Assembly: GCA_900316025.1 (NCBI GenBank)
Contig: ONBJ01000025.1
Location: forward strand, 1 to 33,476
Direction of reading: 5' to 3'
DNA from: an uncultured Eubacteriales bacterium
Lineage (GTDB): Bacteria > Bacillota > Clostridia > Oscillospirales > Acutalibacteraceae
DNA: 33,476 nt
Every line of letters starts with the position of its first letter. Within the stretch, counting starts at the first letter, position 1. Of the stretch, positions 971 to 20,668 are shown piece by piece. A model generated the notes under the pieces. That model made no database searches. It was not told the DNA's origin and worked only from the letters and a program-made list of their open reading frames with translations. The position numbers and the translations under genes were made by a program.

Positions 971-1105
971 TCTGCGGCTACACTCAGGCGGCGATTGCAG
1001 ACGAAAAAAAGCAATATATTGCTTTTTTTCAAATTAAAGCGTGAACGCTTTAATTTTCACGGCAGCTATGCTGCCGTGGTCTGCAATCGCCCGTAAACGC
1101 ACAGA
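971..1105 (-). repeat. Cloverleaf multi-hairpin repeat, copy 1 (reverse orientation)
   Basis: The outer stem GGCGATTGCAGAC (990-1002) pairs with GTCTGCAATCGCC (1079-1091). Between them lie three palindromic arms: 1003-1030 (perfect 28-base palindrome), 1031-1056, and 1058-1078. They are joined with only one unpaired base. A weak distal stem (971-976 with 1100-1105) encloses the whole. Orientation is set by the conserved flank, which reads TGAGTG on the minus strand. It lies between the divergent esterase and DHHW genes, and no ORF is associated with it. Confidence 0.85.
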
Positions 1106-1149
1106 CTTTGATTTTTTGACAAACAAATTTTAATTAATTTGCAATTCTA

Positions 1150-1178
1150 TTGAAAAACACCTTGAATTAAGTTATAAT
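1150..1178 (+). promoter_or_regulatory. Sigma-A-type promoter of the DHHW-protein gene
   Basis: TTGAAA (1150-1155), a 17-bp spacer and a perfect TATAAT (1173-1178) lie about 50 bp upstream of the TTG start at 1232. Confidence 0.75.
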
Positions 1179-1231
1179 CAACCTGTATATAATTAACAGC
1201 TAACATAAAACAAGTGACGGAGGGACATATT

Positions 1232-2464
1232 TTGAGTGATACAAACTATAATAATGATGATGAAATAATCAGAAGACGTCAGGAGCAAAGACGCATGAAA
1301 AAGCGTGAGGAACGTATAAAGAAACAGAAAAGAAACAGAATAATACTTTTGGCAACAGGAGTAGCTGTTCTGTTATTTATTGTTTTCGGAATATCTTCCT
1401 GTGTATCGAGCTGTTCTTCCAGAAACAAGAAAAACGGTAATGTTGAATCCACAGAGGTTGTGGAGCAGACCACATCGGACGAACAAACAGCGGCAACTCA
1501 GGAGCAGCCTGTTCAGGAGGCTACGCTTATGGAAATGGGAGCAGATGTTCCTGACAACGGTCAGGACGGCTACACCACGGATTCAGGAGTGTACATATGG
1601 AACGGTCAGGCATTTGAGCTTTTCTACGGCGACAGCGACCTTGCAAGAACATATGCTGCTACGGTTTCAAATTGCCGACAGAAGATTGACAATTCCATAA
1701 ATGTTTATAATATAGTAGTTCCGATACATATTGCATTCGGACTTCCCGAAAGACTTGAAAAAACTGTTGACAGTTTAAGTCAGAGTGATTACCTTAACAA
1801 TGTCTATACAAACTATACGGCAGACGGAATAAAGGCAGTAAACATTTTCGGCAGCCTTAAACAGCACAGAGCCGAATATACATTCTTCAATACGGATCAT
1901 CACTGGACAAGCTTAGGTTCTTACTATGCGTATCAGGAGTTCTGTAATGCGGCAGGCGAAACGCCTGTAGATATAAACACACTCCAGTCCAAAGAGATAG
2001 GCGGATTTGTAGGTTCTCTTTACAACGCAACCGAAGTTGAGGAACTGAAAAACCATGCTGATACCGTAAAATACTATGAAATGCCTATTACCTACACTAT
2101 GGACGTAATGATGGAGGACAGTACCGAGTTTACAAGACTTGACAGTATGTACTACGATGATGCAGGTTCGGGCGGAAATTCCTACGGAGTGTTCATATGG
2201 GGAGATAACCCTGTTACAAAGATAGTAAACGAGCAGCCTAAAAACGGAAGAAAGGTTCTTGTTATAAAGGAATCCTACGGAAACGCATTTGTACCTTGGC
2301 TTGCAAATAACTATGACGAGGTTCACGCTATAGACTTCAGACATTATACAGGAAATGTTCCGTCATATTGCAGTGAAAACGGAATTACCGATATTATTTT
2401 CATAAACGGAGTTATGAGTTCTGCAAGTGCTTTTCAGCTTGAAAGTATGGAGTCTCTGTTTTAA
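1232..2464 (+). CDS. Membrane-anchored DHHW-family (SGNH-like) protein
   Basis: The start is taken as TTG at 1232 because GGAGGG (1219-1224) sits 7 bases upstream. The in-frame GTG at 1214 overlaps that ribosome site. This gives 410 residues: a short, highly basic cytoplasmic segment, one membrane segment at about 36-56, a Thr/Gln/Glu-rich spacer, then an extracellular domain. The domain carries the defining DHHW motif (D222-W225) and ESYGNAF (S348). In DHHW and AlgX/AlgJ-type families such Ser and Asp-His residues form an SGNH-hydrolase-like active site acting on cell-surface polysaccharide, often O-acetylation. That role is an inference; no polysaccharide or acyltransferase partner gene lies nearby. 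The gene has its own promoter and ends in IS-derived sequence that supplies a strong terminator. Confidence 0.8.
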   Translation: MSDTNYNNDDEIIRRRQEQRRMKKREERIKKQKRNRIILLATGVAVLLFIVFGISSCVSSCSSRNKKNGNVESTEVVEQTTSDEQTAATQEQPVQEATLMEMGADVPDNGQDGYTTDSGVYIWNGQAFELFYGDSDLARTYAATVSNCRQKIDNSINVYNIVVPIHIAFGLPERLEKTVDSLSQSDYLNNVYTNYTADGIKAVNIFGSLKQHRAEYTFFNTDHHWTSLGSYYAYQEFCNAAGETPVDINTLQSKEIGGFVGSLYNATEVEELKNHADTVKYYEMPITYTMDVMMEDSTEFTRLDSMYYDDAGSGGNSYGVFIWGDNPVTKIVNEQPKNGRKVLVIKESYGNAFVPWLANNYDEVHAIDFRHYTGNVPSYCSENGITDIIFINGVMSSASAFQLESMESLF

Positions 2465-2465
2465 C

Positions 2466-2617
2466 CTAAATGGGCAAGAAGTCCCCCACCTCTTAGGTGG
2501 AGGGATGAATTGCCCGTCAGCCGCAAGGCTGACTTTTTCCTTGACAATATAAATATGCTTTGCAAGGTTGGGCGGATTAAAGGAAGCTCCCGCCTCTATA
2601 GGCGGTGAGTACTTCAC
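2466..2617 (+). mobile_element. IS200/IS605-type relict lacking any transposon gene
   Basis: The first ~80 bp match the left end of the tnpB element at 6307 closely, including the preceding TTTAAC (2460-2465). They contain a hairpin whose loop-proximal bases differ compensatorily from the other copy (ACCTCTTAGGT here, GCCTCTAAGGC there). After CCTTGAC the sequence diverges, and at 2581-2617 it has a second end-type hairpin (CTCCCGCC/GGCGGTGAG, then TACTTCAC) of the kind seen at right ends of TnpB-only elements. It therefore looks like an internally deleted, MITE-like derivative keeping both ends. The exact boundaries are inferred. Confidence 0.6.
2516..2538 (+). terminator. Intrinsic terminator after the DHHW gene, carried by the IS relict
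   Basis: A perfect 7-bp stem GTCAGCC/GGCTGAC with a GCAA tetraloop is followed directly by TTTTT. The same terminator is found in the second IS copy at 6356-6378. Confidence 0.8.
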
Positions 2618-2649
2618 CATAAGCTTCGCAGAAAAAACATGAAATTTTC

Positions 2650-2726
2650 GGTCAAGCCTTTTTAAAGGCTTGCGGTTTCCAAAGGCAGAGCCTTTGGTCA
2701 GGATTTTTAAGGGCGAAGCTCTTAAA
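2650..2726 (+). repeat. Three-hairpin intergenic repeat, copy A
   Basis: Three consecutive hairpins are present: AAGCCTTTTTAAAGGCTT (2654-2671), CCAAAGGC/GCCTTTGG (2679-2697) and TTTAAGGGC/GCTCTTAAA (2706-2726). The linkers TTGCGG and TCAGGATT are shared with copy B at 10679-10752. The middle hairpin differs in sequence but stays paired. Confidence 0.75.
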
Positions 2727-2729
2727 TGA

Positions 2730-2766
2730 CAAATGCCCTGTTCTTTATTTAAGAGCAGGGCATTTG
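2730..2766 (-). terminator. Hairpin at the end of the 280-residue gene
   Basis: An 11-bp perfect stem CAAATGCCCTG/CAGGGCATTTG encloses the stop codon of the minus-strand gene ending at 2749. Only a weak T run follows on the minus strand, so terminator activity is likely but not certain. Confidence 0.5.
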
Positions 2767-3591
2767 ATTCACAATCTTTCGGCTGAGAAGCTGACTGAGT
2801 TCATTTACAGTAGAGTTTATTCCGTTTGAAATGCAGAGTACGGGCAGCATTGAGCCAAGTCTGTACTGCCTTCCTTTGTCATAAAGAGCCTGTGCGAAAT
2901 ATTCATCACTCAGAGAGTGCGGCTTTATCTCCTTATAGCTGTTGCTCAACGCTATAATATATTTGCTGTACACTATTCCCCTCTGGCACACAGATGGTTC
3001 TTCCGATGTGAAAATAAGGGTGTCGTCATCAACAGGAAGCAATTTGTCAAGCTTCTGAGGAGCAATAATCAGTCCGCAGCCTTTGAACGCTGATATATCA
3101 CTTCTTATATTAAGCACTGCACCCGTATTGCTAAGCGTCTGCTTGTAAACACGGTAATATTCCTCAGATGCCGATGTCACTACAGTAAGCCTGCCCGTAT
3201 ATTTTATAATACTGCTTACAATTTCGGATTTTTTTCCGCTTTCGTCATAAAGACCTGCTGAAAGCTCCTCAACGTGAGCCTTACATCTTTTCATAACCTC
3301 AAGTGCAGTATTTTCGGCAATTCTTTCCTTTAGAAGATTTGTAGTGTACCTTTTAAGTCCGCTTTCGGGCGGAAAGCTTATATCTGAGTCACAAAGTATA
3401 TTTTTGCTTTCACTGCCTGCAAGCTCACGGATTTTTTTCCAGTTTATTTCCTTTCCGTATTTTCGGTATATGATGTGTACAAGCTGTATGCCGCCGTATT
3501 TTATAACTTCAAGCTCAGTTTTGTCTTTTTTAAAAAAATGCCGTTTTTTTCTTCCTGCGGAATAATCCTTTACAGTCAAAGCTGTGAGCAT
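2749..3591 (-). CDS. Hypothetical protein, 280 residues
   Basis: I do not recognise this protein. It has no signal peptide or membrane segment. The N-terminus is lysine/arginine-rich. The centre contains a possible alpha/beta segment (RLTVVTSASEEYYRVY, then LNIRSDISAFKGCGLIIAPQ) that alternates beta-like hydrophobic runs with charged helices. A GGAGG lies 13 bases before the ATG at 3591, a long but usable spacing. It is 87 bp downstream of the ZIP transporter on the same strand and may be cotranscribed with it. The stop codon lies inside a hairpin. Codon use resembles its neighbours, so it is probably a real, lineage-restricted gene. Confidence 0.65.
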   Translation of the reverse strand: MLTALTVKDYSAGRKKRHFFKKDKTELEVIKYGGIQLVHIIYRKYGKEINWKKIRELAGSESKNILCDSDISFPPESGLKRYTTNLLKERIAENTALEVMKRCKAHVEELSAGLYDESGKKSEIVSSIIKYTGRLTVVTSASEEYYRVYKQTLSNTGAVLNIRSDISAFKGCGLIIAPQKLDKLLPVDDDTLIFTSEEPSVCQRGIVYSKYIIALSNSYKEIKPHSLSDEYFAQALYDKGRQYRLGSMLPVLCISNGINSTVNELSQLLSRKIVNQMPCS

Positions 3592-3678
3592 ATATATGCA
3601 GTTCCTCCCTGAACGGTGATTTTAGGTTGTTTTTGTTATATATACTTATGCCTTAGCCGATGATTTTATTCATATTAT

Positions 3679-4461
3679 CTATCCCAGAAGTACGTCAAGA
3701 GCCATCATAACCGAAAATCCCGATGAAAATGATATTATACCCGTCCTGCCCGATTTCTCTGACGAAGCCTCCGGAACAAGCTCGCCGACCACCACATAAA
3801 ACATAGCACCTGCGGCAAAGCTGAGCATATAAGGCATTACATTTATAAATATCTCAGCCGCACATATTGCCGCCAAAGCACCGGCAGTTTCCACAGCAGC
3901 CGAAAAAACACCGAAAAGAAATGCTTTCAGCTTACTTTCACCGTCTGCGTGGAGCGGCATTGATATTATAGCACCTTCGGGAAAATTCTGTACGGCTATT
4001 CCAAGAGCAAGCACAAAAGCACCTGCGGCAGTTATATTTTCATTTCCGCTCAGAAGTCCTGCGTAAACTATACCTACAGCCATACCTTCAGGAATGTTGT
4101 GAACGGTTACTGCAAGAATAAGCATTGTGTTTTCCTTTTTCTTACCTGTTCTGCGGCAGAAATAAGTTTTTTTGCCGCTGCTTATATGAGTAATAAAAAT
4201 ATCCGCAGCCAGTAAAAAGAATATACCTGTCCAGAAGCCAATCAAAACGGGAACACAGTTAAAACTGCTTACAGGCTTCTGCTCCAGAGCAGGAATTATC
4301 AGACTCCATATTGATGCGGCGGTCATAACTCCTGCGGCAAAGCCCGTAAGAATTGTATTTATAACAGAACTGAGATTTTTTTTCAGAAAAAACACGCAGG
4401 CAGCTCCCGAAACCGTGCCTAAAAACGGAACACCTATCCCTGCGACAACATCTTCAAGCAT
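3679..4461 (-). CDS. ZIP-family divalent metal transporter
   Basis: 260 residues, almost entirely hydrophobic, with about eight predicted membrane segments. The two signature metal-binding helices are visible: HNIPEGMAVGIVYAG and, further on, NFPEGAIISMPL. These are the transmembrane-4 and -5 motifs of ZIP (ZupT/GufA-like) carriers that move zinc, iron or related divalent ions across the cytoplasmic membrane. In the second motif the usual leading residue pair is QN. A hydrophilic lysine-rich loop (around residues 95-110) precedes the HNIPEG helix. An AGGAG sits 8 bases before the ATG. No metal-responsive operator is evident, so the substrate cannot be fixed. Confidence 0.85.
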   Translation of the reverse strand: MLEDVVAGIGVPFLGTVSGAACVFFLKKNLSSVINTILTGFAAGVMTAASIWSLIIPALEQKPVSSFNCVPVLIGFWTGIFFLLAADIFITHISSGKKTYFCRRTGKKKENTMLILAVTVHNIPEGMAVGIVYAGLLSGNENITAAGAFVLALGIAVQNFPEGAIISMPLHADGESKLKAFLFGVFSAAVETAGALAAICAAEIFINVMPYMLSFAAGAMFYVVVGELVPEASSEKSGRTGIISFSSGFSVMMALDVLLG

Positions 4462-4593
4462 ATTGAATCACTCCTGAAAGATTCCGAATCCCTTGATTTT
4501 GGGATTTTCGATATTAACAGACTGTATGCTGTCGAAACTTTTGAAGCCTCATATTATTTTATGCACGGATTTATATATTTGTTAAAAATATAT

Positions 4594-4622
4594 TTGCTAT
4601 TTTATGAGTGTACTGTTATAAT
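4594..4622 (+). promoter_or_regulatory. Sigma-A-type promoter of the SseB-like gene
   Basis: TTGCTA (4594-4599), a 17-bp spacer and a perfect TATAAT (4617-4622) lie upstream of an AGAAGGAGA ribosome site and the ATG at 4657. Confidence 0.7.
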
Positions 4623-4656
4623 AAATATACATATTATTTAGAAGGAGAAAAGAAAT

Positions 4657-6270
4657 ATGAAAATAGATTTTGAAAGAGTATATTTTGATGAGGAATCCAA
4701 ATATCTGCTGTTCAGGTCGAAGCCCGAGAGATTTTATATGCTCAGGGTTATGGATTTTGACGGAGGTCTGCGTTTCGGCAAAACGATAAAGAACCCCGAA
4801 ATAATAGAAAGCGGAAGCGGAGTAATAGGCGAATATCTGCTCACGAAGAAAGAGTTTGATCTCTGGGATACAGACGAAGAGGCTTTCAATGCTCTTGTTG
4901 CCAGCATAAGCAAGAATGCTCCTGCCGACAGAGTGCTTAAAATATATTATCAGCTTTCACCCGATGCACCTCAGAATGATTTGGAGATAAATCCCGGACA
5001 GCCTACCGAAACCAAAACAAACCTTGTGGAAGAAATGAAGGATATGTTTCAGAAGGAACGCAGTGCCAGCGTAAAGAAGTTTATGGATTTCATCTACGGC
5101 AGAGAGGACGATGACATATACTTCATATATTCAGGCAATATGAACCCTATGTTCCCTGCAATAGACTTTGAGGGAAAAATGTTTCTTGCACAGGGCGAGA
5201 AGCAGGCAAAGTTAATAACCGACTCTACAAAGATATTCAACAACAAGTACCGTAAGGTAAGCTCCGAAGAAGCAAAAGACATCATAGAAAACTGCAAAAG
5301 ATACGGAGTATACAAAATTCTGTTCTGCCGTGAGGACGGCGAAGCTTTCCTGCTCGACAGGGACGAGGTTCTCGGACAGCCTACGGAAAACAAGTGGAAT
5401 ACATACAATTCCAACATATATAACCTCATTATAAGATGTATTGAGTGTGCAAATGTTGACAATCCCAATATCAAGGCTAATCAGATGACACTTACAAGTG
5501 AGCTGAGCCACAGTATTTTCAAAAGCATATTCCTTGTTGCAATAGGAATGTCATCTGAGGGACACGAAAAAAACATACTGTTTTCAAACAATGCAAAAGC
5601 CATATACGATGAGGAAAACTTTGTTTTCAGCGGCGGCGAGGATTATGCGGTTGAAAATGCACCTGAGGATAAGCTTATGATAAGAACACTTGTCAATACT
5701 CAGGACAATACTTACGCACTGCCTGTATTTACGGATATGACGGAATTTACAAAGATATTCCCTGAGGGTTCGTCAATACCGCTTGCAGTTACCGCAGAGG
5801 AATTTTACTCTATGAAAAACGAGCAGTGCAACGTCATTATACTGAACCCTCCTACACTGGGCTTCCTGTTTACGGACGAGGCTATGAACCAGCTCAGGGA
5901 TTTAAGCCAGAAGCCGCTCACTATGTTCAGACCTCAGGAAGCAGAACAAAATGAGGAAAAAAAGACTACAATAAATCTTCCTCAGATGCCTCAGCCTTCA
6001 TCAACAGAGGATATTCTCAATATCGTTGCAAACCAGATTAACAGAGCCGATGCAGTGAAAAAAGAAAATATAGTGAAGTCTGATTCCTCTCAGAAAACGG
6101 TTGAGCAGTCCGATGAACAGGAATACGGCGAAGAAGATGAGATTACGGAAACAGAGGAAATTACCGAAGCAGCGGACAATACCGCAGAGGAAAACTCGTC
6201 AAATGATGATACCTCCCGTAAAAAAGGCGGATTTTTCATTTTCAGCAGATTTAAAAAGAAAAATAAATAA
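4657..6270 (+). CDS. SseB-like domain protein with acidic tail
   Basis: 537 residues, no signal peptide or membrane segment. Two regions resemble the SseB N-terminal fold: around 165-245 (PMFPAIDFEGKMFLAQGEKQ through ILFCREDGEAFLLDRDEVL) and around 350-420 (YALPVFTDMTEFTKIFPEG through VIILNPPTLGFLF). In that family a short beta-rich domain is often repeated in cytoplasmic proteins of unknown role. The C-terminal ~90 residues are low-complexity and acidic (EEDEITETEE), ending in a basic, aromatic tip rich in Lys and Phe (FFIFSRFKKKNK) that could touch membrane or nucleic acid. It is monocistronic: it has its own promoter, and an IS terminator follows. The family assignment rests on motif resemblance only. 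Confidence 0.65.
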   Translation: MKIDFERVYFDEESKYLLFRSKPERFYMLRVMDFDGGLRFGKTIKNPEIIESGSGVIGEYLLTKKEFDLWDTDEEAFNALVASISKNAPADRVLKIYYQLSPDAPQNDLEINPGQPTETKTNLVEEMKDMFQKERSASVKKFMDFIYGREDDDIYFIYSGNMNPMFPAIDFEGKMFLAQGEKQAKLITDSTKIFNNKYRKVSSEEAKDIIENCKRYGVYKILFCREDGEAFLLDRDEVLGQPTENKWNTYNSNIYNLIIRCIECANVDNPNIKANQMTLTSELSHSIFKSIFLVAIGMSSEGHEKNILFSNNAKAIYDEENFVFSGGEDYAVENAPEDKLMIRTLVNTQDNTYALPVFTDMTEFTKIFPEGSSIPLAVTAEEFYSMKNEQCNVIILNPPTLGFLFTDEAMNQLRDLSQKPLTMFRPQEAEQNEEKKTTINLPQMPQPSSTEDILNIVANQINRADAVKKENIVKSDSSQKTVEQSDEQEYGEEDEITETEEITEAADNTAEENSSNDDTSRKKGGFFIFSRFKKKNK

Positions 6271-6355
6271 TTCTGAAAAAATTAGTTTATAAAATAGTTT
6301 TTTAACCTAACGGGCAAGAAGTCCCCCGCCTCTAAGGCGGGGGGATGAATTGCAC

Positions 6356-6378
6356 GTCAGCCGTAAGGCTGACTTTTT
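6356..6378 (+). terminator. Intrinsic terminator in the IS left end
   Basis: Stem GTCAGCC/GGCTGAC with GTAA loop followed by TTTTT. It would terminate transcription from the SseB-like gene and insulate the tnpB promoter 3 bp downstream. Confidence 0.8.
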
Positions 6379-6380
6379 CC

Positions 6381-6409
6381 TTGACTTACGGCTTTGTTTA
6401 TGCTATGTT
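6381..6409 (+). promoter_or_regulatory. tnpB promoter
   Basis: TTGACT (6381-6386), a 17-bp spacer and TATGTT (6404-6409) with an extended -10 TGC. An AGAGGTGAG ribosome site and ATG at 6433 follow. Confidence 0.6.
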
Positions 6410-8754: not shown

Positions 8755-8887
8755 CCTGCTGCCGTCAACGCTGCGGCGATTGCGGATATTCGAGGATTAA
8801 TCCTCGAATAAATGAAAGGTTACACCTTTCATTTGTCAAAAGCGTAGCTTTTGACGGACGCAATCGCCGCCTGAGCGAAGCCGCAGG
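8755..8887 (+). repeat. Cloverleaf multi-hairpin repeat, copy 2
   Basis: Outer stem GCGGCGATTGCG (8773-8784) with CGCAATCGCCGC (8859-8870). Arms: 8787-8810 (perfect 24-base palindrome), 8811-8833 and 8835-8855 (GTCAAAAGC/GCTTTTGAC). Only a few unpaired bases separate them. A distal stem CCTGCTGC/GCCGCAGG (7 of 8 pairs) flanks it, with TGAGCG in the right internal loop. It fills the ftsX-M23 gap, so it would be transcribed if the three genes share an mRNA. Confidence 0.85.
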
Positions 8888-10634: not shown

Positions 10635-10678
10635 TTTTACCTCCATGTGATTTCCGACATCAAAAGCCGTAAAGTTTA

Positions 10679-10752
10679 GGTCAAGCCTTTTCAAAGGCTT
10701 GCGGGACGAGGGCAGAGCCCTCGTCAGGATTTTTAAGGGTGAAACCCTTAAA
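10679..10752 (+). repeat. Three-hairpin intergenic repeat, copy B
   Basis: Same layout as copy A at 2650: AAGCCTTTTCAAAGGCTT, then ACGAGGGC/GCCCTCGT, then TTTAAGGGT/ACCCTTAAA, with TTGCGG and TCAGGATT between. The first-hairpin loop and the whole middle hairpin differ from copy A, but pairing is preserved. It sits between ftsE and the regulator gene upstream. Confidence 0.75.
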
Positions 10753-11896: not shown

Positions 11897-12122
11897 AATA
11901 CCATACCTCACAATTTCTTTTTATTATAAACTTAAAATATTACTCTTTGATAAAATGAGAATGCACGATTTCCAACAAGCAATTTTAACCAAAAACACAT
12001 ATATACAATAACTCATTATTTCTATAGTATCTATTTTACACAAATTTTTCTGAAATTGCAACAGTTTTAGCAATAAAAAGAATGAAAATATATAAAATTT
12101 TTAATGATATTATTCAGGATAA

Positions 12123-14057
12123 TCAGATTTTTTCAATTTCTTCAAGTTCAATCTGGGTCATTTCCCAGCATTCGTAAATTTCGTCCTTGTTTTTCTGACA
12201 TTTTTCAAGCTCAGAGGTAAGGCTCATAAGCTTTTCAAAATCCGCCGCCGTGCTTTCATCGGAAATTTCAGCCTGTAATTTTTCTTCAAGCTCATCAAGA
12301 GCATTCATTTCATTCTCGCATTTCTGTATTTTTGTTCTGAGCTTTCGTATATTAGACTGCAATTCCTTTTTTTTTCTGTATTCCTCAGCATTGACGCTCT
12401 CATTCTTCTTTACGGAAGCTGTTTCAGACTCTTTTTCAAAAGTTTTCGACTTTTCAACATAATAATCATAATTTCCCGTGTACTCTCTTATACCGCTTTC
12501 GTCAAGATATAAAATCCTGTCTGCAAGCTTGTTTATAAAATACCTGTCGTGCGAAATTATAAGCAGAGTTCCCTCATAATCATTCAGCGTATTTTCCAGT
12601 GCTTCTCTGGAATTTGTATCAAGATGGTTTGTCGGCTCGTCCAGCAAAAGAAAATTGCTGCCCTCAAGCATAAGCTTGAGCAGTGCTATTCTTGCTCTTT
12701 CTCCTCCGCTGAAGCCTGACATCTTCTTGAACACATCATCACCTTTGAACAGAAACGAACCCAGTGCCGTTCTTACCTGCGTCTGCGTCATAAAAGGGAA
12801 CATATCCCATACTTCATCAAGGGCGGTATTTTCAAGATTGAGATTTTCCTGAACCTGATCAAAATATCCTGTATCCACATTTACTCCGAACTCAATTCTT
12901 CCGCTGTCGCTGCTTATTTTGTTAAGTATTATCTTAAACAGAGTAGTTTTTCCGCAGCCGTTCGCTCCCAGAATAAACACTCTTTCTTTCCGCTTTATAT
13001 CAAAGCTTACATTTTCAAAAAGCTTCTTATTTCCGAAGCTCTTTGAAAGCCTTTCAGCTTTCAGAACATCGTTTCCGCTTGTTCTCTTAGGCTCAAATCT
13101 GAATTTTATACCCTCCAGCTCCTTATCGTCAGGTTCAACAAGATTTTCCCTCAGTCTGTCAGCCTGCTTCTGCTTGCTCTGTGCGGTTATAAAATTATGT
13201 GCCTGTCCCCATCTTTTCTGCTGTTCTACTATGCCCTCTATCCTTTTTATTTCCTTTAAATCATTTTCATACCTCTTTCTCATATCTTCAAGAATTTTCT
13301 TCTTCTTTTCGATAAATTCAGTATATCCGCCCTTATAGCATACCGTTTTGCAATGCTCCAGTTCTATCGTCTTATTCGTGACTGAATCAAGAAAATATCT
13401 GTCGTGGGAAATGATTATTACCGCTCCGTTAAAATCCTTTATAAAGCTTTCCAGCCACTCAACAGATGCTATATCAAGATGGTTTGTAGGTTCATCAAGC
13501 AACAGAAAATTTGCTCCGCTCAACAGAAGCTTCGCCAGACAAAGCTTTGAACGCTGTCCTCCGCTTAGCTTTCCTGTTTCCATAGAAAATTCTTCATCGC
13601 TGAACCCCAGTCCGAGCAGCGTTGAGCGTGTTCTGCTTGCATATGTAAGACCTCCGTTTCTTTCAAATTCTTCCTGAAGCCTTATATTTCTCTCTATCAG
13701 CCTGTCACGCTCTTTTTCATCTTCTTCAAGCTCTATCATCACGGGAAGCTCTTCAAGCTCCTTTTCCTGCTGTATAAGCTTATCAAATACCGACAAAAGC
13801 TCATCATAAATATTTCTGTTCGGATATTTGCAGGCGTGCTGTTCAAGATACCCCAAAACCGTATCACCCGAAAATACTGCCTCTCCGCCTGTCTGTTCAA
13901 GCTGACCGCTCAGAATTTTGAATATAGTTGTTTTTCCTGTTCCGTTTGCACCTACAAAACCGATTTTATCCTTTGCTTCAATCTCAAAAGAAACTCCCCT
14001 GAAAAGAGTTCTTTCAACAAATGTCATTTCTAAATTTCTGACGCTCAATACCGACAT
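12123..14057 (-). CDS. ABC-F family ATPase (ribosome-associated)
   Basis: The start is ATG at 14057 (MSVLSVRN). The open frame reaches 14096, but that stretch lies in the terminator of the upstream gene. 644 residues with two ABC domains and no membrane segments. First: Walker A GANGTGKTT (36-44), signature LSGGQRSK, LLDEPTNHLD. Second: GANGCGKTT, FSGGERAR, LLDEPTNHLD. A long charged linker between the domains (KKKKILEDMRKRYENDLKEI) is the P-site tRNA-interaction motif region of ABC-F proteins. A coiled coil ends the protein (about 555-640). It resembles housekeeping YdiF/Uup types more than antibiotic-resistance members, but resistance cannot be excluded by eye. No leader peptide or attenuator is visible. 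Confidence 0.9.
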   Translation of the reverse strand: MSVLSVRNLEMTFVERTLFRGVSFEIEAKDKIGFVGANGTGKTTIFKILSGQLEQTGGEAVFSGDTVLGYLEQHACKYPNRNIYDELLSVFDKLIQQEKELEELPVMIELEEDEKERDRLIERNIRLQEEFERNGGLTYASRTRSTLLGLGFSDEEFSMETGKLSGGQRSKLCLAKLLLSGANFLLLDEPTNHLDIASVEWLESFIKDFNGAVIIISHDRYFLDSVTNKTIELEHCKTVCYKGGYTEFIEKKKKILEDMRKRYENDLKEIKRIEGIVEQQKRWGQAHNFITAQSKQKQADRLRENLVEPDDKELEGIKFRFEPKRTSGNDVLKAERLSKSFGNKKLFENVSFDIKRKERVFILGANGCGKTTLFKIILNKISSDSGRIEFGVNVDTGYFDQVQENLNLENTALDEVWDMFPFMTQTQVRTALGSFLFKGDDVFKKMSGFSGGERARIALLKLMLEGSNFLLLDEPTNHLDTNSREALENTLNDYEGTLLIISHDRYFINKLADRILYLDESGIREYTGNYDYYVEKSKTFEKESETASVKKNESVNAEEYRKKKELQSNIRKLRTKIQKCENEMNALDELEEKLQAEISDESTAADFEKLMSLTSELEKCQKNKDEIYECWEMTQIELEEIEKI

Positions 14058-14132: not shown

Positions 14133-15479
14133 TTAACCTCTTTTTTCTATGTCTATATACTCACGCTCTTCCACAAGGCTCTTATATGCAGGACGTATTA
14201 TTTTATCAACGTTTATAAGCTCCTCTATTCTGTGAGCACTCCAGCCTACAATTCTTGCTATCGCAAATATAGGAGTGTAAAGCTCCAGCGGAATATCAAG
14301 CATACTGTAAACAAAACCGCTGTAAAAATCAACATTCGCACTTACACCCTTATACATCTTTCTTCTCTGAGATATAAGCTCGGGTGCCATTTCCTCTATC
14401 ATAGAAAAAAGCTTGAAATCCTTGTCCATATGCTTTTCTTCCGCAAGTCCTCTTACAAACTTCTTGAATACCTGAGCTCTGGGGTCGGATACCGAATATA
14501 TAGCATGTCCCATACCATATATCAGTCCCTTTCCGTCAAAAGCCCTGCCGTCAAGAATAGCTTCAAGATAAGCCCTTACCTGCTCACGGTCTGAAATATC
14601 GCTGACATTTTTCTTGAGGTCATTCATCATCTGAACTACTTTGAGGTTTGCTCCGCCGTGTTTAGGGCCTTTCAGCGATGAAAGTGCGGCTGCTATTACC
14701 GAATAAGTATCCGAACCTGCCGAAGAAACAACGTGAGTTGTAAATGTGGAGTTATTTCCTCCGCCATGTTCCATATGTAAAATCAATGCTGCATCAAGAA
14801 CCCTTGCTTCAAGGTCTGTATACTTCATATCGGCTCTGAGCATTCTCAGTATATTTTCTGCGGTTGAAAGCTCAGGGTCGGGACGGTGTATGAACAGACT
14901 GTCATTACATTCATAATGGTTGTATGCCTGATAACCGTACACCGCAAGCATAGGAAATACCGCTATAAGATAAATGCACTGTCTGAGTACGTTCTCAATG
15001 GAAATATCATCGGCTCTGTCATCATATGCCGAAAGAGTAAGCACACTCTTTGTCATAGAATTCATTATATCCCTGCTGGGGGCTTTCATTATAACGTCCC
15101 TCGTAAAGCTTACGGGAAGAACCATATTTTCTCCGAGTACCTTCTTGAACTCATCATACTGCTGCTTTGTCGGAAGCTCTCCGAAAAGCAGCAGATACAT
15201 AGCCTCTTCAAATCCGAAATGCTCATATTTACTGGAATTTTTAACCAAATCCTTTATGGAATATCCTCTGAACAAAAGCTTTCCTGCACACGGAACTCTT
15301 TTTCCGTTTACCTCTTTTGAAGCTATTACGCTTGATATATTTGTAAGTCCTGCAAGTACTCCTACTCCGTTTTTATCACGAAGTCCCTTCTGTACATCAT
15401 ATTTTGAAAAGAGAGCAGTATCTATTGTACTGTTTTCAATACATTTTTTCGCAGCAATGCTTATATATGAATTATCCAT
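14133..15479 (-). CDS. gltA: Citrate synthase
   Basis: The start is ATG at 15479 (MDNSYIS), with GGAGGT 9 bases upstream. The preceding in-frame ATG abuts that site. 448 residues. Typical motifs include CAGKLLFRGYSIKDLV near the N-terminus, LHMEHGGGNNSTFTTHVVSS, LKGPKHGGAN, MGHAIYSVSDPRA and NVDFYSG, which carry the substrate-binding and catalytic His and Asp residues. The enzyme condenses acetyl-CoA and oxaloacetate to citrate in the cytoplasm, feeding 2-oxoglutarate and glutamate synthesis in an anaerobe with an incomplete cycle. No aconitase or isocitrate dehydrogenase lies next to it. A near relative, 2-methylcitrate synthase, is less likely without prp genes. Confidence 0.93.
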   Translation of the reverse strand: MDNSYISIAAKKCIENSTIDTALFSKYDVQKGLRDKNGVGVLAGLTNISSVIASKEVNGKRVPCAGKLLFRGYSIKDLVKNSSKYEHFGFEEAMYLLLFGELPTKQQYDEFKKVLGENMVLPVSFTRDVIMKAPSRDIMNSMTKSVLTLSAYDDRADDISIENVLRQCIYLIAVFPMLAVYGYQAYNHYECNDSLFIHRPDPELSTAENILRMLRADMKYTDLEARVLDAALILHMEHGGGNNSTFTTHVVSSAGSDTYSVIAAALSSLKGPKHGGANLKVVQMMNDLKKNVSDISDREQVRAYLEAILDGRAFDGKGLIYGMGHAIYSVSDPRAQVFKKFVRGLAEEKHMDKDFKLFSMIEEMAPELISQRRKMYKGVSANVDFYSGFVYSMLDIPLELYTPIFAIARIVGWSAHRIEELINVDKIIRPAYKSLVEEREYIDIEKRG

Positions 15480-15635: not shown

Positions 15636-15642
15636 CTCAAAT

Positions 15643-15830: not shown

Positions 15831-15930
15831 GCATTTTTTTTATATTTTTTCATTTCGTGAAATAAGCATTGTTTTTTTTATCAATGATTTATTCTTTTTG
15901 ATAATTCACACAACTATATAACAGATAAAG

Positions 15931-16241
15931 TCAGGATTTGTTTCTGTTTTTTATTTTTATAACATTTACCGTTACTGCAATAAACAGTACAAGGAAGAAA
16001 AATGATACAAGTGCTGCGGCAAATCCTGCAGTCGTGTTTTCCTGCGAAAACAGATAAACCGAAGCAAATCCCAGACCGACAATAATTCCCAAAATCAGCA
16101 GTACACTCAGTATTATGATTACAATTCCAGATACCGAGCCTTTAGCCTTAATTTTGCCATCGACATTTTCTGCAACCGTAACGCCTATCAGTTCGGCAGC
16201 ACTTCCTCAATCCATATAAAGATTTCTCCCAATAATTCCAT
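15931..16241 (-). pseudogene. Small two-helix membrane protein gene, frameshifted
   Basis: The minus strand encodes MELLGEIFIWIEE from ATG 16241. After a one-base frame change near 16200 it continues SAAELIGVTVAENVDGKIKA, then two hydrophobic helices (GIVIIILSVLLILGIIVGLG and AALVSFFFLVLFIAVTVNVI), and ends basic (KIKNRNKS) at 15931. The span of 311 nt is one short of 104 codons, so a single missing base explains it. The ribosome site is poor. I do not recognise the family; a small integral membrane protein of ~103 residues is all that can be said. It is either a pseudogene or an assembly error. Confidence 0.5.
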
Positions 16242-16299
16242 TATGATACCCACTTTCCCAAAATTATTACTATATTGCCGAAAATCAATCATCTATAAC

Positions 16300-16325
16300 A
16301 AAAACTGCCGGTAACAACCGACAGT
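16300..16325 (-). terminator. Terminator of tRNA-Pro
   Basis: On the minus strand a CTGTCGG/CCGGCAG hairpin is followed by TTTTT, about 10 bp downstream of the tRNA CCA end. Confidence 0.75.
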
Positions 16326-16335
16326 CCGTGATAAA

Positions 16336-16412
16336 TGGTCGAGGTGACAGGACTTGAACCTGCGGCATCTACGTCCCGAACGTAGCACTCTACCAAACTG
16401 AGTTACACCTCG
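16336..16412 (-). tRNA. tRNA-Pro (anticodon CGG)
   Basis: 77 nt with encoded CCA. Acceptor stem CGAGGTG/CACCTCG with discriminator A. The anticodon stem CTACG/CGTAG encloses loop TTCGGGA, so the anticodon is CGG. The T arm has the usual GTTCAAGTC. Confidence 0.95.
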
Positions 16413-16536
16413 TTTTATTTTCCGTTGATTAGTATATCACATAACAAATTATAAGTCAAACTATTTTTTCAGAAAAAACATTATCCGATATCTCTTTACA
16501 ACGCATAAAAGAAGCCGTATAAACTTACAGTAATGC

Positions 16537-16564
16537 TTGAAAAACTTTTCATATTCGATATAAT
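16537..16564 (+). promoter_or_regulatory. Promoter of the phosphohexomutase gene
   Basis: TTGAAA (16537-16542), a 16-bp spacer and a perfect TATAAT (16559-16564), about 45 bp before the AGGAG ribosome site. Confidence 0.65.
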
Positions 16565-16618
16565 TAATATTGTAATACTTATTGAATTAATGTCAAAAAT
16601 CTTTTTAGGAGTGTAGTT

Positions 16619-18121
16619 ATGAACAGTTATTGGAGTCAGTTTAAGAGCGGAACAGATATAAGAGGTGTTGCGGTTGACGGTGTGGAGGGGCAGAAAGTTA
16701 ATCTTACAGATGAAAGTATAGGTGCTATTACGGACGGCTTTGTGAAGTGGCTTTGTGATAAAACCTCGAAAAAAGCCTGTGAGCTTACTGTGGCAGTAGG
16801 CCGTGACAGCAGAATATCAGGGCCGCATATTATGGAAATCGTTGAAAATGTCCTGAAAAGCTATGGCATAAAAGTTTTTGAGTGCGGACTTGCATCTACC
16901 CCTTCGATGTTTATGGCTGTTATTGATATGAAGTGTGACGGCTCTGTACAGATTACCGCAAGCCATCACCCTTTTTACAGAAACGGACTTAAATTCTTTA
17001 CAAAAGACGGAGGTCTTGAATCGGAGGATATTACGGCAATTCTTGAAAATGCAGAAAATAAAAGTCTTGCGGAAAAATATGCAGGCGGTGTTATAGAAAC
17101 TGTTGATTATATGTCGCAGTACTGCAAACATCTTAGAGATATGATATGCAGGGAGGTAAATGCCGATAACTACGAAAAGCCTCTGGAGGGCTTTAAAATT
17201 GTTGTTGACGCAGGAAACGGTGCAGGCGGTTTCTACGCTGATGAAGTTCTTGAAAAGCTTGGTGCGGATACATCGGGAAGTCAGTTTTTAGAGCCTGACG
17301 GAATGTTTCCCAATCATATTCCCAACCCTGAGGATAAAACGGCAATGAAGTTTATAACAGAAGCTGTTCTGCGTAACAATGCCGACTTAGGTGTTATATT
17401 TGATACTGACGTTGACCGTGGCGGTGCTGTAGACAGCAAGGGCAACGAGATAAACCGTAACCGACTTGTTGCTATCGCCTCAGCCATAGCACTTGAAAAT
17501 ATAAGAGGCGGAACTATAGTTACGGATTCGACAACATCGGCAGGTCTGAAAATATTTATTGAAAATGAACTTGGCGGAAAGCATCACCGCTTTAAAAGAG
17601 GCTACAAGAACGTTATAAACGAAGCCATACGTCTTAACAAAGAGGGTGTGGACTGTCCTCTTGCAATAGAAACATCCGGACATGCGGCTATGCGTGAAAA
17701 CTATTTTCTTGATGACGGAGCGTACCTCTGCACAAAAATCATTATAAAAATGGCACAGCTCCGCAAGGAAGGCAAGGATATATCCGACCTTACCGCAAGT
17801 CTTAAAGAGCCTGTGGAAAGCAGGGAAATACGCTTTAAAATAACAGATGAGGATTTCAAAGCTACAGGGAACAGAATTATCGCAGAGCTTGAAGAATATG
17901 CCGCAAATCAGAAAGGCTGGATTCTGGCTGATGATAGCAGAGAGGGTGTCAGGGTATCGTTCGGCGAAAATGACGGCAACGGCTGGTTTCTTCTCAGACT
18001 CAGCGTACATGACCCGATTATGCCGCTCAATATAGAAAGCGACTCGGCAGGCGGTGTTGATATTATACTGAGCAAGCTTATGACGTTCCTGAAAGGTTGC
18101 AGCGGTATCGAGGTAAAATGA
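16619..18121 (+). CDS. Phosphomannomutase/phosphoglucomutase
   Basis: 500 residues of the alpha-D-phosphohexomutase superfamily. The phosphoserine loop is ITASHHPFYRNG (Ser115) rather than the commoner TASHNP. The metal loop is DTDVDRGG (D262, D264, D266). The sugar-specificity loop is ETSGHAAMREN, and the C-terminal phosphate-binding loop lies in the SREGVRVSF region. It interconverts hexose 1- and 6-phosphates in the cytoplasm for glycolysis, glycogen or nucleotide-sugar supply. Mannose versus glucose preference cannot be decided by eye. AGGAG lies 7 bases before the ATG. It has its own promoter and is separated from uvrC by a cloverleaf repeat. Confidence 0.92.
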   Translation: MNSYWSQFKSGTDIRGVAVDGVEGQKVNLTDESIGAITDGFVKWLCDKTSKKACELTVAVGRDSRISGPHIMEIVENVLKSYGIKVFECGLASTPSMFMAVIDMKCDGSVQITASHHPFYRNGLKFFTKDGGLESEDITAILENAENKSLAEKYAGGVIETVDYMSQYCKHLRDMICREVNADNYEKPLEGFKIVVDAGNGAGGFYADEVLEKLGADTSGSQFLEPDGMFPNHIPNPEDKTAMKFITEAVLRNNADLGVIFDTDVDRGGAVDSKGNEINRNRLVAIASAIALENIRGGTIVTDSTTSAGLKIFIENELGGKHHRFKRGYKNVINEAIRLNKEGVDCPLAIETSGHAAMRENYFLDDGAYLCTKIIIKMAQLRKEGKDISDLTASLKEPVESREIRFKITDEDFKATGNRIIAELEEYAANQKGWILADDSREGVRVSFGENDGNGWFLLRLSVHDPIMPLNIESDSAGGVDIILSKLMTFLKGCSGIEVK

Positions 18122-18124
18122 TTT

Positions 18125-18253
18125 CTGCGGCAAAGTGTGCGATTGCAGCCAACGGCAGACTTAAGTCTGCCGTTGAAATTAAAGCAAAAGCTTTAATTTC
18201 GTCAAAAGCGTTCGCTTTTGACGGCTGCAATCGCAGTATGAGCGTTGCCACAG
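18125..18253 (+). repeat. Cloverleaf multi-hairpin repeat, copy 3
   Basis: Outer stem TGCGATTGCAGCC (18138-18150) with GGCTGCAATCGCA (18223-18235). Three hairpins (18151-18174, 18175-18200, 18201-18222) tile the interior with no unpaired base between arms. Distal stem CTGCGGCAA/TTGCCACAG (8 of 9 pairs), with GTATGAGCG in the right internal loop. It begins 4 bp after the phosphohexomutase stop. Confidence 0.88.
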
Positions 18254-18273
18254 GTTCTGATATACGATAAAAT
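18245..18273 (+). promoter_or_regulatory. Probable uvrC promoter overlapping the repeat edge
   Basis: TTGCCA (18245-18250), a 17-bp spacer and TAAAAT (18268-18273). The -35 box lies within the distal stem of the cloverleaf repeat, so the element could affect access to it. Confidence 0.5.
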
Positions 18274-18324
18274 CATAGTGTCCGAAAATATACACATTAA
18301 GCAGAAAACTTTCCGGTGATGATA

Positions 18325-20172
18325 ATGGAAGAAAAAATCAGAGAGTTGAGAAAAAAAGCTATGTCGCTTCCGCTTAGCCCTGGAGTTTACATTATGCGTG
18401 ATTCAGGCGGAAGAGTAATATATGTAGGTAAGGCAAAGGCTTTAAAAAACAGAGTAAGCCAGTATTTCGGCTCGCATACAAACCATACCCAAAAGGTAAT
18501 AAATATGGTTGAAAACGTTGACACCTTTGACTATATAGTTACGGACAGCGAATTTGAAGCTCTTGTTCTTGAATGCAGTCTTATAAAGCAGTATCTTCCG
18601 AGATACAATATTCTGCTTAAAGACGACAAGGGTTACAACTATATAAAAATAACAAATGAGGCATATCCTACTATAACTGCCGTAAATAAAACAGAAAATG
18701 ACGGTGCAACATATATAGGCCCTTATATGAGCGGATACTATGTAAGTAATGCTGTAAGTCAGGCTTTGAAGCTTTTCAGACTGCCGACCTGCGGTAAAAA
18801 ATTTCCGACTGATACGGTCAAGGGACGGCCTTGCCTGAATTATCATATAAAGCAGTGCAACGCTCCATGCGTGGGAAAAATCTCCGAGGAAGAATATCGT
18901 GAAAGCGTAGCGGAAGCAGTGGAGTTTCTCAAGGGCGGCAACAAACCTGATATACAGAAAATGACCGAGGATATGGAAAAAGCCGCAGAAAATCTGGAAT
19001 TTGAACGTGCGGCAAAAATAAGGGACAGAATTAAGGCTTTGAAAAAGATGACAGAAAAGCAGAAGGTAGTCTGTTCAAAGATAGAGGAACAGGATATTAT
19101 AGCCGTCATAACGGAAGACGACAAAGCCTGCTTTGAGGTTTTTCTTTTCAGAAACGGAGCATTGTTTGACAGGGAGAATTTTATAGTAAACAATATTTAC
19201 GATTTGCCACAGGCAAGAAGTGAGTTTATAAGCAGCTACTATTATATGAGGGATTTTGTTCCGTGCAGGATTTCCGTTGACGGCGAAGTATCGGATAAGG
19301 AACTTCTTGAAAACTGGCTGAGTGAAAAAAGAGGAAAAAAAGTATCGGTTGTTATGCCGAAGAGAGGTGAACAGCTTATGCTTGTTGAAATGTGCAAAAA
19401 AAATGCGGCTGAGCATCTGGCACATCAGCGTGGAGCTGTCGGCAGGGAGCTTATGGCTCTTAATGAGCTGGGCAAGCTTCTTGGATTGCAGAAGCCGCCG
19501 AAATATATAGAGTCCTATGATATTTCAAATCAGAACGGAACTGCCAATGTAGCAGGTATGGTTGTTTTTGAAAACGGAAAGCCACTTAAAAGTGCATACA
19601 GAAAATTTGAAATAAAAACGGTTGTCGGACAGGACGACTACGCTTCAATGGCAGAGGTTATCCGCAGACGCATTGATGAATATGAAAAGCATAAGGACGA
19701 GGAAACAGGCTTCGGCAGACTGCCCGACCTTATTCTTCTGGACGGAGGAAAGGGACAGGTCAGCAGTGTAGCCGTTGTATTGTACGAAATGGGCTACGGT
19801 CATATTCCTCTTTTCGGTATGGTAAAGGATAACAAGCATAAGACAAGGGCAATCACCGATTCAGGAAAGGAAATATCCATAGCGAATAAAAGAAATGTAT
19901 TTACGCTTGTTTCCTCTATACAGGAAGAGGTTCACCGCTTCGCCATAGGCTATCACAGACAAAAACGCAAATCAAACACATTCAGAAGCTCACTTACCGA
20001 AATTACCGGAGTTGGGGAAAAACGTGCAGTTCTGCTTATAAAGCATTTCGGTACAATAGCAAATATAAAGGAAGCAGAAATTGAAGAACTTGAAAATACT
20101 CCGTTCTTAAATAAAGCCGTTGCACAGAATATCTACAGCTATTTCCATAAGGAAGATGATTATGACGGTTAA
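18325..20172 (+). CDS. uvrC: Excinuclease ABC subunit C
   Basis: The start is taken as ATG at 18325 (MEEKIREL), with GGTGA 5 bases upstream; ATG or GTG codons at 18319 and 18316 are alternatives. About 615 residues, normal length. N-terminal GIY-YIG nuclease (PGVYIMRDSGGRVIYVGKAK) makes the 3' incision. A cysteine cluster follows (CGKKFP, CLNYHIKQCNAPC), then the UVR/UvrB-binding segment (EKAAENLEFERAAKIRDRI). The RNase H-like domain making the 5' incision has YDISNQNG and LDGGKGQ. The tandem helix-hairpin-helix at the C-terminus has ITGVGEKRA. It works with UvrA and UvrB in nucleotide excision repair; neither is in the window. Confidence 0.97.
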   Translation: MEEKIRELRKKAMSLPLSPGVYIMRDSGGRVIYVGKAKALKNRVSQYFGSHTNHTQKVINMVENVDTFDYIVTDSEFEALVLECSLIKQYLPRYNILLKDDKGYNYIKITNEAYPTITAVNKTENDGATYIGPYMSGYYVSNAVSQALKLFRLPTCGKKFPTDTVKGRPCLNYHIKQCNAPCVGKISEEEYRESVAEAVEFLKGGNKPDIQKMTEDMEKAAENLEFERAAKIRDRIKALKKMTEKQKVVCSKIEEQDIIAVITEDDKACFEVFLFRNGALFDRENFIVNNIYDLPQARSEFISSYYYMRDFVPCRISVDGEVSDKELLENWLSEKRGKKVSVVMPKRGEQLMLVEMCKKNAAEHLAHQRGAVGRELMALNELGKLLGLQKPPKYIESYDISNQNGTANVAGMVVFENGKPLKSAYRKFEIKTVVGQDDYASMAEVIRRRIDEYEKHKDEETGFGRLPDLILLDGGKGQVSSVAVVLYEMGYGHIPLFGMVKDNKHKTRAITDSGKEISIANKRNVFTLVSSIQEEVHRFAIGYHRQKRKSNTFRSSLTEITGVGEKRAVLLIKHFGTIANIKEAEIEELENTPFLNKAVAQNIYSYFHKEDDYDG

Positions 20173-20231
20173 TTTCTGCCGAAGCTTTTATTTAAATTTT
20201 TGACGGATATTTTAATTATGACAAAAAACAC

Positions 20232-20260
20232 TTGATTTTTATTGAATTTTATAGTATACT
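20232..20260 (+). promoter_or_regulatory. Promoter of the SRP RNA gene
   Basis: TTGATT (20232-20237), a 17-bp spacer and TATACT (20255-20260). Transcription would begin near 20267. It may also supply dnaX by read-through. Confidence 0.65.
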
Positions 20261-20266
20261 TTGATT

Positions 20267-20468
20267 ACAATCGCATTTTGGCGGTTAGCTGAGCAAGTCA
20301 GAGTTAAAAAGTCCTATGTAAATGTGAACGGCAGGCCCTGTACGATTGGGTGCTGTGAACCATGTCAGGCGGGGAACCGAGCAGCATTAAGCAGATTTCC
20401 TGATGCGATGCAGTAAGTCTGCCGTTCTCATTTGCATAGGAAAGCCGTCTGCCTTGCTCTTTTAATTT
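20267..20468 (+). ncRNA. ffs: Signal recognition particle RNA (scRNA)
   Basis: The universal SRP domain is clear: CATGTCAGG, then CGG-GGAA-CCG, then AGCAGCA. The GGAA tetraloop stem differs from the common TCC/GGA but is fully paired. A long central helix joins TCCTATGTAAATGTGAACGG with CCGTTCTCATTTGCATAGGA. About 70 further nt in the 5' and 3' arms, with GAGCAAG/CTTGCTC pairing, suggest an Alu-type domain as in Bacillus scRNA. The 3' end falls near the T-rich 20460-20468; both ends are approximate. It lies upstream of dnaX as in Bacillus. The RNA binds Ffh for membrane targeting of proteins. Confidence 0.9.
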
Positions 20469-20514
20469 AGAGTAAGTTCGGCAGGTCATGCCGAAGGTTT
20501 CAGCCCGAGCTTTT

Positions 20515-20610
20515 GCGATTGCAGCCCGTTACGGACAGAATGTCCGTAACGAACCTTCACTTGATAAGTGAAGGTTGTCAAAAGCAGAAGCTTTTGACGG
20601 CTGCAATCGC
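20515..20610 (+). repeat. Cloverleaf multi-hairpin repeat, copy 4
   Basis: Outer stem GCGATTGCAGCC (20515-20526) with GGCTGCAATCGC (20599-20610). Three hairpins at 20527-20551, 20552-20576 and 20577-20598 fill the interior with no spacer bases at all. The right flank reads CGTATGAGC as in copy 3. The distal stem is weak in this copy. It separates the SRP RNA from dnaX. Confidence 0.88.
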
Positions 20611-20668
20611 CGTATGAGCAGAACCAAGGGCAGGTATGGTCACGGTGACGGGAGGGTAACTGTAATAT

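What the first reader, a model, noticed from the sequence alone, without database searches (positions are those of the whole stretch)
971..20620. Four copies of a cloverleaf (four-way-junction) intergenic repeat with fully covarying arms
Seen: at 971-1105 (reversed), 8755-8887, 18125-18253 and 20515-20610 an outer 12-13 bp stem with a GCGATTGC/GCAATCGC core encloses exactly three palindromic hairpins. In copies 3 and 4 these tile the interior with no unpaired base. Arms 1 and 2 differ wholly between some copies yet stay perfectly paired. Arm 3 (GTCAAAAGC/GCTTTTGAC) is conserved in copies 2-4. A conserved right flank (CAATCGC, four bases, TGAG[CT]) and, in three copies, a distal CTG/CAG-type stem complete the element. 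Known: REP, BOX and MITE-type repeats usually have one or two hairpins. Inference: such an exact junction with wholesale arm replacement suggests selection on shape, either a structured RNA or a DNA junction recognised by a protein, or an active palindrome-correcting process. No transposase of its own is in the window.
Basis: partly seen in the sequence, partly recalled or inferred. Interest (0 to 1): 0.78.

Follow-up and report, generated by a model that had tools for sequence, protein, structure and literature searches.

The report
Shape-defined four-way-junction DNA repeat
A gut-type bacterium carries a DNA repeat at well over a hundred places, mostly just after a gene ends, in which each copy can fold into the same three-armed cloverleaf although the letters differ from copy to copy; bacteria of at least two other genera carry the same shape with largely different letters, which points to a repeat kept by its shape as DNA rather than as RNA.

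Summary
The four copies are real: 4 of 156 exact-core copies in this 2.08 Mb draft genome; sister species RUG213 has 165. A motif-free, mismatch-tolerant detector finds 82 three-arm junctions in 624 kb of it and 0 in one shuffle. At 27 orthologous sites 45 stem pairs changed on both sides, 9 are mismatched. In 169 oriented elements 21 of 5,302 arm pairs are mismatched: 7 G·T, 7 A·C, 7 other. No G·U excess, no preferred orientation to genes and no terminator signature make a structured RNA unlikely. Loop inversions (8 of 52 changed loops) fit replication template switching, known to homogenise hairpin arms. Genus G096 has 51 junctions in 237 kb and G034 at least three, with other sequences; 39 other genera, one stretch each, had none. 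Copies follow stop codons and avoid divergent regions. RAYT is absent from the two copy-rich sister genomes; integron integrase and IS110 are below cut-off wherever tested. Best reading: a shape-defined, probably formerly mobile DNA palindromic repeat; partner protein unknown.

The parts
991..1090 (-). Copy 1: outer stem 991-1002/1079-1090; arms 1003-1030 (A class), 1031-1056 (M class), 1058-1078 (C class), + coordinates
971..997 (-). Copy 1 flank CAATCGC-N4-TGAG and the outer GTAGCCGCAG part
8776..8867 (+). Copy 2: outer stem core 8776-8784/8859-8867; arms 8787-8810, 8811-8833, 8835-8855
8861..8887 (+). Copy 2 flank CAATCGCCGCCTGAGCGAAGCCGCAGG
18139..18234 (+). Copy 3: outer stem 18139-18149/18224-18234; arms 18150-18175, 18176-18199, 18200-18223; no unpaired base
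18228..18253 (+). Copy 3 flank CAATCGCAGTATGAGC...
20515..20610 (+). Copy 4: outer stem 20515-20526/20599-20610; arms 20527-20551, 20552-20576, 20577-20598; no unpaired base
20604..20619 (+). Copy 4 flank CAATCGCCGTATGAGC

Best explanation
The copies are members of a dispersed, non-coding DNA repeat about 80-145 bp long (median 98), defined by its shape: one closing stem plus exactly three hairpin arms of about 10 bp, meeting in a nearly or fully paired four-way junction. SHOWN: high copy number, strand-symmetric near-perfect pairing, paired substitutions at orthologous sites, placement just after stop codons, and recurrence of the same shape with other sequences in two other genera. INFERRED: (1) the arms are kept perfect mainly at DNA level, by polymerase template switching across each hairpin, which copies one arm onto the other and can flip the loop; (2) the family spread as a non-autonomous mobile element whose cruciform or single-stranded fold was recognised by a protein, more for its junction shape than for its letters; (3) much of the spread predates the split of the two species, and what remains is tolerated or used at 3' ends of genes. 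The protein is not identified.
For: Copy number: 156 and 165 exact-core matches in two sister species, reversed-pattern control 0. Motif-free detection: 82 in 624 kb, 0 in one shuffle of each stretch. Exactly three arms: in G000 no 4- or 5-arm version and 4 two-arm hits (1 in shuffles); in G096 none, none and 3 two-arm hits (0 in shuffles). Covariation in 29 copies (28 distinct) picked for gap-free junctions and similar arm lengths out of 169 oriented: 98.1% of 1,120 cells paired, 27 of 40 pairs changed on both sides, 151 both-side cells against 38.6 in shuffles, 6 one-side (G·U) cells. Orthologs: 24 of 24 mapped own sites and 22 of 26 mapped RUG213 sites hold the element in the other species (biased towards presence by how stretches were chosen); 761 pairs the same, 45 changed on both sides, 9 mismatched, 74 whole-pair indels; 23 of the 45 are transversions, which no G·U intermediate can bridge. 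Stem 5' strands are 87% identical between orthologs, 60-nt flanks 79%, loops 48%, so arms evolve but stay paired. Mismatches: 21 of 5,302 arm pairs in 169 oriented elements, G·T 7, A·C 7, other 7. Loop inversions: 8 of 52 changed loops are exact reverse complements, baseline 5.4%, P = 0.006; complement control 4, reverse control 1. Template switching with arm homogenisation and spacer inversion is described in PMC8604942 and PMC8794818 (passages). Placement: G000 58 tandem, 11 convergent, 3 divergent, 1 in a long ORF (P = 0.0006 for so few divergent); G096 32, 11, 3 (P = 0.003); median stop-to-element 39 and 44 nt in tandem pairs. Other genera: G096 51 in 237 kb, G034 three copies.
Against: No partner protein or autonomous copy was found, and an autonomous copy was not searched for systematically. 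The four presence/absence sites show no clean target duplication, so mobility is inferred from dispersal only. Loop inversion is only moderately above baseline, and changed loops are not clearly closer to the inverted form (23 against 16, 13 ties). 9 of 38 differing arms differ at five or more aligned positions, which single template switches do not explain. Conserved letters remain (GCGATTGC core; an A-tract at 90-93% in three positions of the A arm), so sequence matters too. Ascertainment: the detectors require good pairing, so decayed copies are missed; many G000 stretches were chosen around known copies. Junctions are gap-free in only 88 of 169 oriented elements. G096 has a higher mismatch rate (22 of 1,517: G·T 1, A·C 3, other 18) and some of its 51 look like chance AT-rich hits.
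Confidence: 0.6

Rival explanations
1. A structured RNA (cis-acting 3' UTR element or small RNA) whose cloverleaf is selected at RNA level.
For: Copies lie just 3' of stop codons, mostly in tandem gene pairs, so most are probably transcribed; covariation is very strong.
Against: G·T and A·C mismatches are equal, 7 and 7 of 5,302 pairs; 23 of 45 paired changes are transversions; orientation to the upstream gene is 22 same, 31 opposite of 53 tandem cases; no Rfam hit on a copy in the stretches searched.
Confidence: 0.12
2. Bidirectional intrinsic terminators or mRNA-end stabilisers, kept as hairpins for transcription.
For: In tandem pairs the element starts a median 39 nt after the stop codon (quartiles 24 and 68), near the +50 to +80 peak of bacterial inverted repeats (PMC13155455, passages); few divergent sites; copy 2 is followed by a T-rich run.
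Against: No T-run excess 3' of the element on the sense strand: G000 20 of 53 against 18 of 53; G096 fewer, 10 of 33 against 22 of 33, P = 0.006. Termination needs one hairpin, not a junction of exactly three arms. mRNA stabilisation itself was not tested.
Confidence: 0.12
3. Ectopic gene conversion among the many copies, not template switching, moves ready-paired arms between copies.
For: Among 38 ortholog arms whose inner 8 bp differ, the RUG213 version occurs elsewhere in the RUG213 sample in 20 and the own version elsewhere in the own sample in 12; the RUG213 ortholog of copy 4 carries an arm identical to that of another RUG213 copy, L132.
Against: 24 of the 38 differ at only 1-2 aligned positions; unchanged arms are also often shared with other copies (15 of 37); tracts under 30 bp are short for RecA-type conversion (general knowledge).
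Confidence: 0.2
4. REP/REPIN-like element moved by a Y1 (RAYT) transposase.
For: High copy number, extragenic, palindromic, 3' of genes, as REPs are.
Against: PF01797 not found in the two copy-rich sister genomes, G000 (100% complete) and G001 (90%) (not tested in G096 or G034); three arms plus a closing stem instead of one or two imperfect hairpins.
Confidence: 0.06

Closest known systems
REP / BIME / REPIN (bacterial extragenic palindromes; PMC3733652 passages read, PMC3116915 search listing only)
   Same: High-copy, extragenic, palindromic, located after genes, alternative complementary stem residues between subfamilies.
   Different: Four-way junction with exactly three arms; no G·T tolerance, whereas GT pairing is said to be often observed in GTAG REP stems; no RAYT in the two copy-rich sister genomes.
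Mitochondrial repetitive hairpin-forming and double-hairpin elements (PMC2800124, passages read)
   Same: Dispersed DNA hairpin elements, some copies differing by few complementary substitutions; stems more conserved than loops; no known adaptive function.
   Different: Organelle genomes; single or double hairpins, multiples by tandem insertion; no closing stem described in the passages seen.
Integron attC sites (PMC2727003, PMC6393395, search listing only)
   Same: DNA sites reported to be recognised by fold with little sequence conservation.
   Different: No integron integrase above cut-off in any of 6 genomes; perfect hairpins; dispersed in both orientations rather than a cassette array.
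Template-switch-maintained inverted repeats (PMC8604942, PMC8794818, passages read)
   Same: Arm homogenisation and spacer inversion, both signatures seen here.
   Different: There a mutational process at scattered loci; here over a hundred copies of one element with three arms each.

Membership tests
REP/REPIN | RAYT (Y1) transposase in the genome | tested here: not met
   PF01797: 0 matches in G000 and G001; not tested in G096, G034
REP/REPIN | High copy, extragenic, palindromic | tested here: met
REP/REPIN | One or two short hairpins | tested here: not met
   Three arms plus closing stem
REP/REPIN | GTAG or CGTC tag at the foot | tested here: not met
   Right foot of 144 copies: GTAG within 2 nt of the core 0, CGTC 2; GTAG within 25 nt in 16. 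Only the right side was counted
Classical MITE | Terminal inverted repeats | tested here: met
   Outer stem, 6 bp (detector minimum) to 33 bp
Classical MITE | Target-site duplication at empty/filled sites | tested here: inconclusive
   Four presence/absence sites, ends not sharp, no clean duplication
Classical MITE | Parent transposon with matching ends | not tested
   No systematic search was made
Integron attC | Integron integrase | tested here: not met
   TIGR02249: 0 of 6 genomes above cut-off; sub-threshold matches in all 6
IS110-associated element | DEDD (IS110) transposase | tested here: not met
   PF01548: 0 of 7 genomes above cut-off; weak sub-threshold hits in G000, G002, G003
Structured RNA family | Covariation with one-sided (G·U) intermediates on one strand | tested here: not met
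   G·T 7, A·C 7, other 7 of 5,302 pairs
Rfam catalogue | Match of a copy to a curated family | tested here: not met
   Window at gathering threshold; stretches L085, L088, L146 at E 0.5: no hit overlaps a copy
Intrinsic terminator | T-run after the hairpin on the sense strand | tested here: not met
   20 of 53 sense against 18 of 53 antisense in G000; 10 against 22 of 33 in G096

The most novel reading that the evidence does not exclude
A class of mobile DNA whose identity is a shape, a fully paired four-way junction with exactly three arms of about one helical turn, recognised by an unknown junction-specific protein that moved or copied it, while template switching keeps the arms perfect and lets the letters drift until relatives in other genera share little but the fold.
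Probability: 0.3. Interest if true: 0.88.

Novelty: new variant of a known kind. Interest (0 to 1): 0.74.

Why it matters
It offers over a hundred natural replicates, most of those I could map shared by two species, for measuring how hairpin arms stay complementary at DNA level without RNA selection, a question usually confounded with RNA function. It also suggests a repeat class that sequence-based repeat finders would split or miss, because its conserved feature is a junction geometry.

Tried and rejected
An apparent inversion of copy 1 between species came from using the wrong strand in a rearranged region; one search showed this and I dropped it. The terminator idea was tested by T-runs and not supported. 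RAYT (genus only), integron integrase and IS110 partners were tested and not found above cut-off in the copy-rich genomes searched; RAYT matches do occur in G002 and G004, which lack the exact-core repeat. The 15 hits in unrelated taxa from the pattern scan do not form cloverleafs: 14 failed decomposition and one scored -6 with 6 mismatches. Four single hits elsewhere in the family read as ordinary sequence, judged by eye from the printed letters. G365 and G022, weak model hits, gave no three-arm junction by the strict detector. A viral-collection contig with copies is 99.7-99.8% identical to this genome, so it is not evidence of phage carriage. One plasmid search (G034 copy) and one phage search (copy 4) found nothing. 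The two flanks of the G003 copy hit different contigs in G000 and in G001, so orthology could not be judged. The model search of order (394 genomes) and class (391) gave one weak new hit, G638, E = 6.6e-4, not followed up; the tool scored 10 candidates per genome, so sequence-divergent families could be missed. Of 30 copies selected for the alignment 29 were aligned; L132, near-identical to L085, was left out.

Full report
OBSERVATION. Decomposed, each has a closing stem around a GCGATTGC/GCAATCGC core and exactly three perfect hairpins; copies 3 and 4 have no unpaired base, copy 1 has one and copy 2 has six. Their DNA folds are 10 to 14 standard deviations better than shuffles.

ABUNDANCE. 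The pattern GCGATTGC-N60-90-GCAATCGC occurs 156 times in the window's genome (2,084,495 bases, 98 contigs); the reversed control occurs 0 times. Of the 6 genomes of the genus, G001 has 165, G003 one and three have none; the G003 match is a real cloverleaf. In 300 genomes of the family 6 matched: G000, G001 and four single hits that read as ordinary sequence by eye. The 15 hits in other taxa do not form cloverleafs.

MOTIF-FREE TEST. A strict detector that asks only for three adjacent perfect hairpins closed by a stem found 55 in 332 kb of this genome and 0 in three shuffles of each stretch, 12 of them without the GCGATTGC core; it found none in 100 kb of G002, 100 kb of G005 and 37 kb of G004. 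Outer stems reach 33 bp. A mismatch-tolerant version found 82 in 624 kb against 0 in one shuffle; lengths run from 82 to 143 bp, median 98. Four- and five-arm versions were not found in G000 or G096; two-arm versions gave 4 hits in G000 (1 in shuffles) and 3 in G096 (0 in shuffles). Many stretches were chosen around known copies, so densities are biased upward; as an extrapolation, about 200 copies per genome are likely.

COVARIATION. In 28 distinct copies chosen for similar shape, 27 of 40 pairs changed on both sides, with 151 both-side cells against 38.6 in shuffles and 6 cells changed on one side. Arms fall into three classes by position: GC-rich, TTCAAGG-type and A-tract; 88 of 169 oriented elements have no unpaired junction base. 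Outside the core the right flank is less conserved than the window suggests: TGAG within 15 nt in 57 of 144.

ORTHOLOGS. Of 81 own elements, 24 had both flanks mapped in held RUG213 sequence and all 24 sites hold the element; of 90 RUG213 elements, 26 were mapped and 22 are present, 4 absent. Much of the held sequence on both sides was fetched because it held copies, so both figures are biased towards presence; the four absences show turnover without a clean target duplication. In 27 unique pairs (81 arms) 761 stem pairs are the same, 45 changed on both sides, 9 are mismatched and 74 are whole-pair indels, some of them boundary shifts. 23 of the 45 are transversions. Stem strands are 87% identical, 60-nt flanks 79% under a permissive alignment, loops 48%.

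DNA, NOT RNA. Of 176 elements found in the two species 169 could be oriented; in these 21 of 5,302 arm pairs are mismatched: 7 G·T, 7 A·C and 7 other. An RNA under selection should tolerate G·U on its own strand far more than A·C (established knowledge), and GT pairing is said to be often observed in REP stems (PMC3733652, passage). Orientation relative to the upstream gene is 22 same, 31 opposite. T-runs are not enriched on the sense side.

MECHANISM. Paired change with few intermediates, and loops that are exact reverse complements in the other species (8 of 52 changed loops; baseline 5.4%, P = 0.006; complement control 4, reverse control 1), match template switching as described in PMC8604942 and PMC8794818 (passages). 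The loop signal is moderate: by edit distance 23 changed loops are closer to the inverted form, 16 to the forward form, 13 tie. Ectopic conversion between copies remains a real rival, above all for the 9 of 38 differing arms with five or more differences.

PLACEMENT. G000: 58 copies between tandem genes, 11 convergent, 3 divergent, 1 inside a long ORF; divergent is under-represented against length (P = 0.0006), and in tandem pairs the median distance from the upstream stop is 39 nt. G096: 32, 11, 3 (P = 0.003), 44 nt. Genes were called by a simple longest-ORF rule, and short ORFs running through a copy were dropped. An earlier count without that filter gave 53 tandem, 10 convergent, 4 divergent, 6 inside ORFs and 6 at stretch edges. 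In the window the neighbours are ordinary: esterase-like, DHHW protein, M23 peptidase, FtsX, phosphomannomutase, UvrC, DnaX.

OTHER GENERA. A covariance model searched in 398 genomes of the family matched 5: G000, G001, G096 (another genus) and, weakly, G365 and G022. Sampled stretches of G096 hold 38 perfect or 51 mismatch-tolerant junctions with other outer stems (GGCGGCGAGCC type); 0 in shuffles. A survey of 40 further genomes of 40 genera, one stretch each (1.0 to 20 kb, five under 5 kb, 589 kb in all), gave 0 by the strict detector and two by the tolerant one, both in G034; a third G034 copy followed, and none was found in a further 30 kb of G034. Three other genomes of G034's genus had no match to its copy. 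G034's middle arm CTTTCAAGGGCG resembles the CTTTCAAG arms here (by eye), so distant homology is likely but not proved.

PARTNER. Y1 transposase (RAYT) was searched in the genus: absent from G000, G001, G003 and G005, matched in G002 and G004. Integron integrase has no match above cut-off in 6 genomes and IS110 transposase none in 7. The mover, if any, is unknown or lost.

PRIOR ART. No Rfam hit on a copy in the stretches searched. The listings of nine paper searches showed no such repeat; most subscription papers and all bioRxiv preprints are missing from that library, so this is weak evidence of novelty. Closest kinds are REP/REPIN elements and mitochondrial hairpin elements (PMC2800124, passages).

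Noticed in passing
window 2459-2545 and 6299-6385; 2633-2726 and 10662-10752: Two other short intergenic repeat families with hairpins, 84-90% alike between copies. By eye, sequence of the second family lies in L148 at a site where RUG213 has a cloverleaf.
   Followed up: partly
window 24689-31207 and 32374-33349: A 2,172-aa ORF without a Pfam match at E 1e-5, and beyond it tandem repeats of about 546 nt.
   Followed up: no
L077 (IMGVR_UViG_3300032007_004071): A contig in the viral collection that is 99.7-99.8% identical to G000 contig C24 over its whole length, with three cloverleafs; probably host DNA.
   Followed up: partly
L218 about 12016-12283 and 15111-15378: In G034 two cloverleafs are followed by a shared tail of about 140 bp, so the repeated unit there is longer.
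   Followed up: partly
L150 (G000:C44), L153 (G000:C50): 20-kb stretches of this genome with no (L150) or one (L153) cloverleaf; possibly acquired DNA, foreign contigs or chance.
   Followed up: no
L146 1270-1383: FMN riboswitch close to a cloverleaf at about 1500.
   Followed up: no
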